DNA of 64,000 nucleotides from a virus. The stretch is from positions 1 through 64,000 of the IMG/VR virus record IMGVR_UViG_3300025668_000786; one strand, given 5' to 3'. This document shows, in pieces, positions 13,243 to 28,229 of the stretch. A program made the position numbers and the translations under genes. The notes under the pieces are model-generated. The model made no database searches. It was not told where the DNA came from and worked only from the letters and a program-made list of their open reading frames with translations. Position 1 is the first letter of the stretch. Each line of letters starts with the position of its first letter.

Positions 13243-14928
13243 ATGAGAAAAAAGCGTATACTTTTTTGTAGCGAAGCTACCTTTTTAAACACGGGCTATG
13301 CCACCTACACTAGAGAAATCCTTAACTACTTGCATTCTACCGGCAAGTATGAAATTGCAGAAATGGCATCCTACGGTCAACGTAACGACCCACGGGCAGC
13401 AAACATACCGTGGAAGTACTATGGGGTTATGCCCAATAGAGAATGTGAGCCAAAATCCTCGGAAGAAGAGTGTAGACAGTATGACTCAAAAGGTACTAAC
13501 CAATTTGGTGAGTGGATTTTTGAACATGTCTGTTTAGATTTTTTACCGGATATTGTATGTGATATACGTGACTTTTGGATGTTAGATTTTGCAGAAAGGT
13601 CGCCCTTCCGACCCTGCTTTAAATGGGCTATCATGCCTACTGTAGACGCAAGACCACAGGCTAGACAGTGGGTCGCTACATACGCCTCTGCTGATGCCTG
13701 TTTTACATATTCAGATTGGGCGGGTGGAGTCCTGGCGGATCAATCGGGAGGAAAGATTAATTATTTGGGAAGTGCCCCTCCGTCAGCCCACCCCGCCTAT
13801 CATCCTGTTGAAGATAAGAAGGCTCATAAGCAAAAGCATGGGATTGATCCCAAATACAAGATCATTGGCACAGTAATGCGAAACCAACGTCGCAAGCTGT
13901 ATCCAGATCTTTTTGCAGCCTTTAAGAAGTTCTTGGATCAGGCTGAGAGTAAAGACTATTATCTATACTGTCATACTAGCTACCCAGATCTAGGTTGGAA
14001 TATTCCTGAGCTATTGCAAGAAAATGAACTATCGTCTCATGTATTGTTTACATACATATGCAACGAAACTCAAAAACCATTCCCCTCGCTGTTTAAGGGG
14101 GCAGTAGCGCAATCTCCATTTACTGGCCAGTGGTGTGCTACACTGTCTAATGTCAAGAATGGAGCTTCTTACGAAGACCTTTCTGATATTGTCAATCTCT
14201 TTGACCTCTATACTCAGTATGCCAACTGTGAGGGTTTTGGCCTGCCGTATGTAGAAGCTGCGGCTTGTGGTATACCAGTGTGCGGCACTGACTACTCCGC
14301 TATGGAGAGCGAGATTAGAAAGCTGGATGGATACCCCCTTAAGCCAGCAGGCTTGTATAAGGAGCTAGAGACAGGTTGTTTACGCGCAGTCCCAGATAAC
14401 GATAGGGCGGCAGAGTTTTTCTTGAATTTCTTTGAGAAAGACAAAAATGACGAAGACAGATTAAAAATTGGCGAAAGAACACGAGAAAACTTCGAGAAAC
14501 ATTTCCAGTGGCACCTCAGTGGTAAAAAATGGGAAGATTACTTTGACAGCGTAGAACTGTTGCCTATTGAGAGAACCTGGGGCGCTCCACCAAGAGTACA
14601 CCAGCCAGAAGAATTACCAAAAGAAATCCCAAAGAATGCAGCCAATGGAGACATAGCAAGGTGGTTGATAGCTAAAGTTTTATGTGAACCAGAAAGAATG
14701 GGTACATTTTTTGAAATGAGGCTCACCAAAGACCTAACCTACAAAACAACGACATCAATGACCGGAGGTATGTATTTCAACGAGTCGTCAGCGTCCTTTG
14801 ACAATCCAAACCCCTTGCAACCATTTAGCTTGCAAGACGCTTATAATAATTTAAGGAGCTTATGTGAGAGAAGAAACCATTGGGAGAATATAAGGATACA
14901 AAAGATAAATCAAATGAGAGGTGCATAG
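13243..14928 (+). CDS. Large GT-B glycosyltransferase (GT4-like)
   Basis: This 561-residue protein has two Rossmann-type halves. The N-terminal RILFCSEATFLNTGYATYTR is a typical acceptor-side start with a glycine loop. The C-terminal half has the donor-site motif YANCEGFGLPYVEAAACGIP followed by VCGTDYSAM, the E-x7-E signature of GT4 enzymes. It is much longer than usual (about 370 residues), with an extra C-terminal region from about residue 430 of unknown role. It is the first gene of the main glycan island, 18 nt after ssb, with AAGGAT just ahead of the ATG. Donor and acceptor sugars are unknown. Confidence 0.82.
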   Translation: MRKKRILFCSEATFLNTGYATYTREILNYLHSTGKYEIAEMASYGQRNDPRAANIPWKYYGVMPNRECEPKSSEEECRQYDSKGTNQFGEWIFEHVCLDFLPDIVCDIRDFWMLDFAERSPFRPCFKWAIMPTVDARPQARQWVATYASADACFTYSDWAGGVLADQSGGKINYLGSAPPSAHPAYHPVEDKKAHKQKHGIDPKYKIIGTVMRNQRRKLYPDLFAAFKKFLDQAESKDYYLYCHTSYPDLGWNIPELLQENELSSHVLFTYICNETQKPFPSLFKGAVAQSPFTGQWCATLSNVKNGASYEDLSDIVNLFDLYTQYANCEGFGLPYVEAAACGIPVCGTDYSAMESEIRKLDGYPLKPAGLYKELETGCLRAVPDNDRAAEFFLNFFEKDKNDEDRLKIGERTRENFEKHFQWHLSGKKWEDYFDSVELLPIERTWGAPPRVHQPEELPKEIPKNAANGDIARWLIAKVLCEPERMGTFFEMRLTKDLTYKTTTSMTGGMYFNESSASFDNPNPLQPFSLQDAYNNLRSLCERRNHWENIRIQKINQMRGA

Positions 14929-15600
14929 GTGTTATTCTTAGACAAGGTTAAAGATAAATACCCAAACCTAAAAAATATATTTGAAGTTGGGGCACATCGA
15001 GGATATGACATATCAGACATTCTGGAAAAATGGCCAGATGCAAAAATTTATGCGTTTGAAGCAGACCCATTCAACTATAAAATATGCGATGAAAAATTCA
15101 AAGATGTTAAGAACGTTGAAGTCCATCACCTCGCAGTGACATACAAGACATCGCCGGTAATCTTTAACAGGTTCTACGACCTAGAAACAATTCCAGACGA
15201 AGAAACGCTTGTCGGTAAGAATTTGCAAAATACAGGACAAGGGTCGATACTAAAATCTGGAAAAGGTATGACCGAAATTTTTAAAGTTAAGGATGTGGTT
15301 GAAGAAATAACAGTAAACGGAATTTGTCTATATGATTTCTGTAGGGAAAATGCTATACAAAACATTGATGCTGTTTTTATGGACGTTCAAGGTGCAGAAA
15401 TGCAGGTTTTATGCGGATGTAAGGACTTAATGGCCACCGTTAAAGCAGTTATATTAGAGTGGTCTAGCAATTACGTGATGTATGAAGGTGAAACAGACTT
15501 CATCTATATTAAAAAATTTCTTGAAGAGGGGGGAATGGAAGAGATAGCTAGGGAGTATCAATTCGAGGGTATTTCTGGCGACTCACTATTCTTGAGGTAG
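14929..15600 (+). CDS. FkbM-family methyltransferase
   Basis: This 223-residue protein matches FkbM-type SAM-dependent methyltransferases: IFEVGAHRGYDI (SAM-binding motif I, about residues 18-29), IYAFEADPFNYKIC (motif II acid) and the FkbM hallmark VFMDVQGAEMQVLCGC. The family O-methylates sugars or polyketide hydroxyls. Between glycosyltransferase genes it is most simply a sugar O-methylase capping or decorating the glycan. It starts with GTG, immediately after the preceding stop (TAG then GTG). The full-length fold and intact motifs suggest it is active. Confidence 0.87.
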   Translation: MLFLDKVKDKYPNLKNIFEVGAHRGYDISDILEKWPDAKIYAFEADPFNYKICDEKFKDVKNVEVHHLAVTYKTSPVIFNRFYDLETIPDEETLVGKNLQNTGQGSILKSGKGMTEIFKVKDVVEEITVNGICLYDFCRENAIQNIDAVFMDVQGAEMQVLCGCKDLMATVKAVILEWSSNYVMYEGETDFIYIKKFLEEGGMEEIAREYQFEGISGDSLFLR

Positions 15601-15603
15601 ACA

Positions 15604-27374: not shown

Positions 27375-27375
27375 T

Positions 27376-27801
27376 ATGAAATATGGATTTGTAGCAAGCT
27401 GTTTTGACATCCTACATCCAGGATACATACGTATGTTGATAGACGCAAAAGATCAATGCGACTATTTGATAGTTGGATTACAGGACGACCCATCCGTCGA
27501 GAGGCCAGGAATAAAAAACGCGCCTATTTTTCCTTTCCAAGATAGGTTTATGATAATGTCTTCGATAGTATATGTAGATGAAATAAGACGCTACAATTCC
27601 GAAAATGAACTTTATCAATTGTTACAGGGGCTAATTTCTGAAAAAAAGATAGATGTCAGGATACTCGGAACAGACTATGTTGGAAAAAGATTTACGGGGG
27701 ACGATTTAAACATACCGTTACACTTTCACGAAAGAGACCACTCTTGGTCAAGCAGTGAAACAAGAAAAATAATCATAGACAGAGCAAAGGAGAACGTATG
27801 A
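27376..27801 (+). CDS. Cytidylyltransferase-like nucleotidyltransferase (TagD/RfaE type)
   Basis: This 141-residue protein has the HIGH-superfamily layout: FVASCFDILHPGYIRMLIDA at the N-terminus (HPGY in place of HxGH) and HSWSSSETRKIIIDRAK at the C-terminus (in place of ISTTxI). Related enzymes make CDP-glycerol or ADP-heptose-type donors. The second histidine is replaced by tyrosine, so activity is plausible but not certain. LGTDYVGKRFTGDD fits the strand before the C-terminal signature. It follows the fcl gene by 1 nt and overlaps the next gene by 4 nt. Confidence 0.72.
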   Translation: MKYGFVASCFDILHPGYIRMLIDAKDQCDYLIVGLQDDPSVERPGIKNAPIFPFQDRFMIMSSIVYVDEIRRYNSENELYQLLQGLISEKKIDVRILGTDYVGKRFTGDDLNIPLHFHERDHSWSSSETRKIIIDRAKENV

Positions 27802-28229
27802 ATATTGGATTTTACATAGACAGCCTAAAGGGCGAACCAGAGACAATCGCCCTCTATAAGGGGCTAAATAAACTAGCAGATAGCGGCGAAGCGGATGACA
27901 TAAGTCTGTTTTACAATCAGGTAGAATTTAACCCAGAACAGCCAAAGTTTGGACTGTTCAACGCTGCCGAAGCCTGGTGCTTTACAGGTACATTAATTGC
28001 CAACAGCCTTAGAAACGCAAAGATGGCAGCGAATATGATAAACAAGTTCAAGCTATTCTATCTTTACAACAAAGGAGATAAGAATGTCTTTGATTTGATA
28101 TCCTTGCCACACCACGTCCCGGTTCTGGCAAACACAAAAGAAGAAGCCGAATATATTTATCGAGTATCAGGCAAACCAGTCCACTCAGTCGTTAATAATA
28201 TAGAAGAAATCATAGAGGCCGTCAAATGA
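27798..28229 (+). CDS. Small Rossmann-like protein of unknown function
   Basis: This 143-residue protein starts NIGFYIDSLKGEPETIALYK, followed by ADDISLFYN and AWCFTGTLIANSLRNAKMAA. Alternating strands and helices suggest a single alpha/beta domain, perhaps like the N-terminal half of a GT-B enzyme. HHVPVLANTKEEAEYIYRVS, then a helix to the end, completes it. No catalytic motif is seen. The AAAGGAG ribosome site is good (5 nt before the ATG). It is the last gene of the glycan island before the nuclease. Confidence 0.5.
   Translation: MNIGFYIDSLKGEPETIALYKGLNKLADSGEADDISLFYNQVEFNPEQPKFGLFNAAEAWCFTGTLIANSLRNAKMAANMINKFKLFYLYNKGDKNVFDLISLPHHVPVLANTKEEAEYIYRVSGKPVHSVVNNIEEIIEAVK

What the first reader, a model, noticed from the sequence alone, without database searches (positions are those of the whole stretch)
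13243..28229. A 15-kb glycan-building island with around ten glycosyltransferases and donor-sugar enzymes in one phage operon
In the same direction and mostly overlapping: several GT-B and GT-A enzymes, FkbM methylase, nucleotidyltransferase-like and cytidylyltransferase-like proteins, UDP-GlcNAc 2-epimerase and GDP-fucose-synthase-like epimerase, with Glf and the GT29 block further upstream. This exceeds the one or two glycosyltransferases usual for DNA or receptor modification in phages and resembles a capsule/O-antigen cluster or the autonomous glycan systems of giant algal viruses. Products could decorate the very large tail proteins or rebuild the infected cell's surface.
Basis: partly seen in the sequence, partly recalled or inferred. 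Interest (0 to 1): 0.78.

Follow-up and report, generated by a model that had tools for sequence, protein, structure and literature searches.

The report
Phage glycan-building gene island
A group of uncultured aquatic phages, probably infecting planctomycetes, carries in one fixed place in the genome a set of up to 30 genes for making and linking sugars. This suggests they build their own glycan, most likely to coat their virus particles, although similar but less constant clusters are already known in cyanophages.

Summary
Window 13243-28229 has 18 intact co-directional genes: at least seven glycosyltransferases supported by profile or fold, up to four more probable, methyltransferases, two nucleotidyltransferases, a WecB-type UDP-GlcNAc 2-epimerase and a GDP-fucose-synthase-like epimerase. 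Upstream (4196-7629) lie Glf, a GT29-like transferase and, newly recognised here, a CMP-sialic-acid-synthetase-like protein. It is neither a misassembly nor pseudogenes. The same island sits between the DnaE/SSB genes and an HNH-like gene in at least 11 viral contigs, the largest 157 kb, with a conserved core and a swappable cassette. Core genes mostly diverge in step with the phage polymerase, so the block is inherited with the phage. Hosts are probably Planctomycetota, inferred from the phage's DUF1501 genes. No island protein in 11 records looks like a polytopic membrane protein, so no flippase, polymerase or lipid-carrier initiator was seen. Thymidylate-synthase-type base hydroxymethylases were not found. 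The best reading is a cytosolic pathway that glycosylates virion proteins, as in chloroviruses. Remodelling of host surface glycans remains open. Multi-GT clusters are known in cyanophages (P-SSM2), so this is a new variant of a known kind; its permanence and its sialic-acid-type modules set it apart.

The parts
4196..5266 (+). Unknown protein with Cys-rich N-terminus, first gene of the upstream GT29 block; found in the close relative G001
   Evidence: no family hit; 67% identical protein in G001
5257..5916 (+). GT29-like glycosyltransferase (sialyltransferase family)
   Evidence: Pfam GT29 E 1.9e-6, above cut-off; profile hits ST6Gal1 E 6e-4
5913..6554 (+). CMP-sialic-acid-synthetase-like cytidylyltransferase
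   Evidence: profile with one homologue hits CMP-NeuAc synthetase 1eyr E 3.7e-8 over nearly full length; G001 has a KdsB/CTP_transf_3 protein in the same slot
6547..7629 (+). Glf, UDP-galactopyranose mutase
   Evidence: Pfam E 3.7e-72
13243..14928 (+). GT-B glycosyltransferase, the most constant island gene (all 11 compared records)
   Evidence: Pfam; 35-88% identity in relatives that span the site
14929..15600 (+). FkbM-type methyltransferase; not core
   Evidence: Pfam; no orthologue in the records, one 26% hit in L155
15604..16728 (+). GT-B glycosyltransferase, core
   Evidence: Pfam
16721..17713 (+). GT-B glycosyltransferase, core
   Evidence: Pfam E 8.9e-18
17710..18132 (+). Small core protein; looks like a partial methyltransferase by eye (inference)
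   Evidence: conserved in relatives; no family hit
18119..18931 (+). Core protein, Cys-rich N-terminus, possibly GT2-like (weak)
   Evidence: best PDB match a glycosyltransferase, E 0.05
18943..19680 (+). LicC-like nucleotidyltransferase, core; typical PK motif altered in close relatives, so activity uncertain
   Evidence: profile hits CTP:phosphocholine cytidylyltransferase 1jyk E 1.1e-12; alignment
19677..20531 (+). GT-B fold glycosyltransferase, core, no sequence match
   Evidence: AlphaFold pLDDT 90; Z 15.4 to GT4 enzyme BshA, 255 aligned, rmsd 3.5
20531..21247 (+). GT-A-type glycosyltransferase, core
   Evidence: PHROG 14945 E 3e-14; alignment
21401..22099 (+). GT-A fold glycosyltransferase with DxD motif, core; family in at least 381 viral contig stretches
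22083..22904 (+). GT2-family glycosyltransferase, cassette gene
   Evidence: Pfam
22994..23914 (+). Probable GT with conserved D-x-D motif (inference), cassette gene
   Evidence: alignment; no PDB sequence hit
23918..24622 (+). Probable GT2-family glycosyltransferase, cassette gene
   Evidence: Pfam E 1.4e-3, below cut-off; homologue in G019
24604..25629 (+). Non-hydrolysing UDP-GlcNAc 2-epimerase (WecB type), cassette gene
   Evidence: NCBIfam wecB 252 bits, above cut-off
25631..26437 (+). Possible GT, weakly RXYLT1/exostosin-like, cassette gene
   Evidence: Pfam E 2.7e-3, below cut-off
26430..27374 (+). GDP-L-fucose-synthase-like epimerase/reductase, core
   Evidence: NCBIfam Fcl E 3.9e-86, below the equivalog cut-off; 58-78% in relatives
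27376..27801 (+). HldE-C/TagD-like nucleotidyltransferase, cassette gene
   Evidence: Pfam CTP_transf_like; NCBIfam
27798..28229 (+). Small unknown core protein closing the island
   Evidence: conserved in relatives
8917..13224 (+). Left anchor: DnaE in two parts with an exonuclease between, and SSB
   Evidence: syntenic in relatives
28226..30095 (+). Right anchor: HNH/homing-endonuclease-like, u28996, u29751
   Evidence: PHROG 559; syntenic

Best explanation
The island is a standing part of a phage lineage: a cytosolic pathway that makes its own sugar donors and assembles a branched, methylated glycan. Donors inferred from genes: UDP-ManNAc by the WecB-type epimerase, a GDP-fucose-like sugar, UDP-galactofuranose by Glf, and in some members CMP-linked sialic-acid-type sugars. 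Soluble glycosyltransferases then build the glycan on a cytosolic acceptor, most likely phage structural proteins such as the very large proteins made from the adjacent genes. Core enzymes would make a constant inner glycan and the swappable cassette would set the outer sugars. Shown: gene content, synteny, core/cassette pattern, co-divergence of most core genes with the polymerase, and no visible membrane step. Inferred: donors, acceptor and purpose (shielding, protection or attachment).
For: Same block between DnaE/SSB and HNH-like genes in at least 11 records. GT13243 is found in all 11 compared, and its divergence tracks DnaE (Spearman 0.90; other core genes 0.31-0.86). Variable genes sit mainly between 22083 and 26430. 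None of 188 island ORFs in 11 records has more than one hydrophobic stretch, and the few single hits look like buried helices (window). 21401 resembles the PBCV-1 capsid GT in sequence (weak) and fold. Chloroviruses also use soluble virus-encoded GTs with a conserved core glycan and variable decoration (PMC7826918; PMC9614988). No Thymidylat_synt in 12 records, ThyX in 6.
Against: No virion glycan has been measured. Many bacterial O-antigen GTs are also soluble or peripheral, so lack of membrane genes does not exclude action on host lipid-linked precursors exported by the host's flippase. The A064R similarity is weak and the fold match is shared with glycogenin and others. Co-divergence is weak for some core genes (u27798 0.31, u20531 0.47). 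No GDP-mannose dehydratase was found in the window for the fucose-synthase-like enzyme. Genomes may be incomplete.
Confidence: 0.5

Rival explanations
1. The enzymes alter host surface polysaccharide during infection: they add sugars to host lipid-linked precursors, and the host's own flippase and polymerase export the product, blocking superinfection or grazing. This is the usual reading of cyanophage 'LPS' clusters.
For: Authors propose this for P-SSM2-type clusters (PMC7824862). Gene content is similar: epimerases, GTs, methyltransferase in P-SSM2 and S-SRM01. Cassette diversity would suit evasion of competing phages. WecB and Fcl products are common bacterial envelope donors (own knowledge).
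Against: No initiator, flippase, polymerase or transporter seen in any island. The constant core across very divergent members (GT13243 down to 35% identity) suits a fixed phage acceptor better than variable host envelopes.
Confidence: 0.3
2. The GTs glycosylate phage DNA on modified bases.
For: The phage has a dNMP kinase, and virus GTs can glycosylate DNA (cited in PMC12619734). u19677's fold list includes T4 alpha-glucosyltransferase, among many GT-B enzymes.
Against: No Thymidylat_synt-type hydroxymethylase in 12 records, with working controls; ThyX instead. No Tet/JBP in 15 records, although that search had no positive control. Donor diversity and methyltransferases exceed what DNA glucosylation needs.
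Confidence: 0.05
3. The cluster is cargo: a mobile polysaccharide block or packaging filler without a fixed role.
For: Raised for cyanophage LPS genes as possible stuffer DNA (PMC3037559). Island GC and GC3 are lower than those of the replication genes, most so in cassette genes.
Against: Fixed locus, intact frames and largely co-divergent core in all relatives.
Confidence: 0.07
4. Contig chimera of a bacterial polysaccharide locus and a phage, or decayed genes.
For: Only the general similarity to bacterial clusters.
Against: Same junctions in many contigs. GT13243 has only generic GT hits in 2 of 10 planctomycete genomes, and u21401 occurs in 1 of 199.
Confidence: 0.01

Closest known systems
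Cyanophage 'LPS' gene clusters (Prochlorococcus phage P-SSM2, S-SSM7; Synechococcus phage S-SRM01)
   Same: Contiguous multi-GT clusters with nucleotide-sugar epimerases and methyltransferases in a tailed phage; FclEpi is 39-43% identical to cyanophage epimerases and S-SRM01 has a u21401 homologue
   Different: Here the phage carries DnaE and the locus and core are constant across a divergent lineage, whereas the large cyanophage clusters occur in the larger genomes only (PMC3037559). Glf, LicC-like, GT29 and CMP-sugar enzymes are present here.
Chlorovirus PBCV-1 autonomous capsid glycosylation
   Same: Soluble virus-encoded GTs, sugar methyltransferases, conserved core with variable decoration; one GT similar to A064R domain 1
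   Different: Different virus realm and host; virion glycan not demonstrated here; the sequence link is one weak hit
Virion glycosylation in mycobacteriophages (Freeman et al. 2023, cited in PMC12619734)
   Same: Phage GTs acting on virion proteins
   Different: From my own knowledge far fewer GTs and no donor-sugar pathway; the paper itself is not held
Moraphages, large aquatic phages with four core GT groups (PMC12619734)
   Same: Several GTs in the core genome of an uncultured aquatic phage lineage
   Different: Predicted Bacteroidota hosts; no such contiguous donor-and-GT island described in the passages read

Membership tests
Bacterial capsule/O-antigen (Wzx/Wzy or ABC) cluster | polytopic flippase, polymerase or ABC permease and lipid-carrier initiating transferase | tested here: not met
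   no polytopic membrane protein among 188 island ORFs by hydropathy, none in the window island; no such Pfam family
Bacterial capsule/O-antigen (Wzx/Wzy or ABC) cluster | several GTs with nucleotide-sugar synthesis genes in one operon | tested here: met
Cyanophage-type phage polysaccharide cluster | contiguous GTs, epimerases and methyltransferases in a tailed phage genome | tested here: met
   against P-SSM2 and S-SRM01 annotation
Cyanophage-type phage polysaccharide cluster | common descent of the clusters | tested here: inconclusive
   FclEpi and u21401 match cyanophages; GT13243 matches none, u20531 only Streptomyces phages; other genes not tested
Autonomous virion glycosylation (chlorovirus type) | soluble GTs without membrane segments | tested here: met
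Autonomous virion glycosylation (chlorovirus type) | glycan present on a virion protein | not testable with these tools
   needs purified virions
Autonomous virion glycosylation (chlorovirus type) | conserved core enzymes with variable peripheral enzymes | tested here: met
Phage DNA glycosylation system | thymidylate-synthase-like base hydroxymethylase | tested here: not met
   Thymidylat_synt 0 of 12 with positive controls; records may be fragments
Phage DNA glycosylation system | TET/JBP base oxidase | tested here: inconclusive
   Tet_JBP 0 of 15 but the search had no positive control
Sialic-acid-type (nonulosonate) module | CMP-sugar synthetase plus CMP-sugar-dependent transferase | tested here: met
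   window u5913 and GT29; relative G023 also; by homology only
Sialic-acid-type (nonulosonate) module | NeuB-type synthase | tested here: not met
   absent from the 70.7-kb window record, which is a fragment; two copies in relative G023

The most novel reading that the evidence does not exclude
A bacteriophage lineage has its own chlorovirus-like virion glycosylation system: a constant core glycan built by lineage-specific GTs on the giant structural proteins, with exchangeable outer sugars including, in some members, phage-made sialic-acid-type caps. To my knowledge it would be the first such system tied to planctomycete phages.
Probability: 0.35. Interest if true: 0.8.

Novelty: new variant of a known kind. 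Interest (0 to 1): 0.55.

Why it matters
Large sugar-gene clusters in cyanophages have been known for years, but whether they work and what they modify is unresolved (PMC3037559 says it is not known whether they are functional). A lineage that always keeps the island at one place, with a constant core and a variable cassette, gives a clean case for testing. If the glycan is on the virion, phages join giant algal viruses in building their own coats.

Tried and rejected
Misassembly and pseudogenes: rejected by synteny in many contigs and open frames. Recent uptake as one block from the host: GT13243 has only generic hits in 2 of 10 planctomycete genomes; u21401 in 1 of 199, and that hit lies in a longer cellular gene with no other phage gene beside it. 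DNA glucosylation: no hydroxymethylase found. Whole-island DNA search of phage isolates: nothing. No isolate matches GT13243, DUF1501b or the structural protein at 41621. u22994 and u18119 gave no useful PDB sequence hits. Literature searches for DUF1501 phages, phage NeuB and planctomycete phages gave no matching system in titles and abstracts listed. The apparent 87-base end repeat of G023 is imperfect and lies in repetitive sequence, so I do not claim that genome is complete.

Full report
What was checked. The window is bases 1-64000 of a 70,750-base IMG/VR virus record. The claimed interval 13243-28229 holds 18 intact genes on the + strand, tightly packed. Family searches confirm GT-B enzymes at 13243, 15604 and 16721, an FkbM methyltransferase at 14929, a GT2 enzyme at 22083, a UDP-GlcNAc 2-epimerase at 24604 (WecB type, above the curated cut-off), a GDP-fucose-synthase-like enzyme at 26430 and an HldE/TagD-like nucleotidyltransferase at 27376. 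PHROGs calls 20531 a glycosyltransferase.

Unnamed genes. The family of 18943 matches CTP:phosphocholine cytidylyltransferase (1jyk, E 1e-12), though a usually conserved PK motif is altered in close relatives. 21401 has one PDB sequence hit, the PBCV-1 capsid glycosyltransferase A064R (E 0.13). Its model (pLDDT 75.5) is a GT-A fold matching that enzyme, glycogenin and others. 19677 had no useful sequence match, but its model (pLDDT 90) is a GT-B fold (Z 15.4 over 255 residues, rmsd 3.5, to BshA). That gives seven well-supported glycosyltransferases; 18119, 22994, 23918 and 25631 are probable only.

The upstream block. Glf and a GT29 protein are confirmed. The gene between them, u5913, with one homologue as a profile, matches CMP-N-acetylneuraminate synthetases (1eyr, E 3.7e-8). 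In the close relative G001 the same slot holds a KdsB-type CMP-sugar synthetase. So a CMP-sugar maker and a CMP-sugar-type transferase sit side by side. In the 157-kb relative G023 the cassette holds a LegC/PseC-like aminotransferase, a nucleotide-sugar dehydrogenase, GT29, two NeuB-type proteins and a PseF-like CMP-sugar synthetase. GT29 was seen in 3 of 26 records and NeuB in 1 of 26, so these are cassette options, not core.

Relatives. Viral-contig scans with DUF1501b, the structural protein at 41621, the epimerase and u21401 brought in relatives. Whole-record comparison shows one architecture: toprim, dNMP kinase, nuclease, often DUF1501, split DnaE with an exonuclease between, SSB, then the island, then an HNH-like gene, u28996, u29751, then convergent giant structural genes. 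Core: 13243, 15604, 16721, 17710, 18119, 18943, 19677, 20531, 21401, 26430, 27798; the deepest relatives G005, G011 and G019 keep only part of it. Variable: 14929, 22083-26437 and 27376, replaced elsewhere by other GTs, DUF5672, methyltransferases, epimerases and aminotransferases. The stretch taken as island holds 9 to 30 ORFs in different records, some of them cut by contig ends. Pairwise identities of core genes track DnaE: rho 0.90 for 13243, 0.86 for 16721, 0.74 for 21401, but only 0.47 for 20531 and 0.31 for 27798. I read this as mainly vertical inheritance with some exchange. GC3 is lower in island than in replication genes, most in the cassette.

Host. Of 80 cellular relatives of the phage DUF1501b protein, nearly all are labelled Planctomycetota. 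This is an inference from one gene family, not proof of host. DUF1501 was found in 12 of 23 records.

Mechanism. None of 188 island ORFs in 11 records looks like a polytopic membrane protein, so there is no visible initiator, flippase or polymerase. Base hydroxymethylases of the thymidylate synthase family are absent in 12 records with working controls, ThyX is present in 6, and Tet/JBP gave nothing, though without a positive control. A cytosolic acceptor is therefore most likely, and phage structural proteins made next door are the simplest candidates. Chloroviruses are the working parallel: soluble virus-coded GTs, conserved core glycan, variable decorations. The rival is action on host lipid-linked glycans that the host exports; soluble GTs do not exclude this.

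Comparison with the known. P-SSM2 and S-SSM7 have large 'LPS' clusters of unknown use (PMC3037559; PMC7824862; annotation), and S-SRM01 has one with a u21401 homologue. The kind is therefore known. New here are the constant locus and core across a lineage without matching isolates in the phage collection searched, the sialic-acid-type modules and the probable planctomycete hosts. I rate it a new variant of a known kind.

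Noticed in passing
window 2683-3954 and 7631-8863: Two DUF1501 proteins in a phage; cellular relatives of the second are nearly all Planctomycetota. Their role in the phage is unknown.
   Followed up: partly
window 8917-12764: DNA polymerase III alpha is split in two ORFs with an RNase-T-type exonuclease gene between them, and this arrangement is kept in the relatives compared.
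   Followed up: no
L233:7490-17369 (relative G023): Near-complete sialic-acid-type (nonulosonate) gene set in a phage cassette: LegC/PseC-like, NeuB twice, PseF-like, GT29, plus an NAD-synthase-like protein.
   Followed up: partly
Viral contigs, u21401 family (L151-L230): u21401 and often u20531 recur as neighbours in many other phage contigs up to 282 kb where the rest of this island was not seen in the fetched flanks.
   Followed up: partly
window 31965-63201: Four giant minus-strand genes (1414, 1580, 4066 and 2539 aa); the two tested have no Pfam or PHROG hit. The counterpart of 43367 in G023 is 5382 aa.
   Followed up: no
window 4196-5266 and 18119-18931: Two proteins share a Cys-rich N-terminal segment by eye, possibly a common metal-binding domain.
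   Followed up: no
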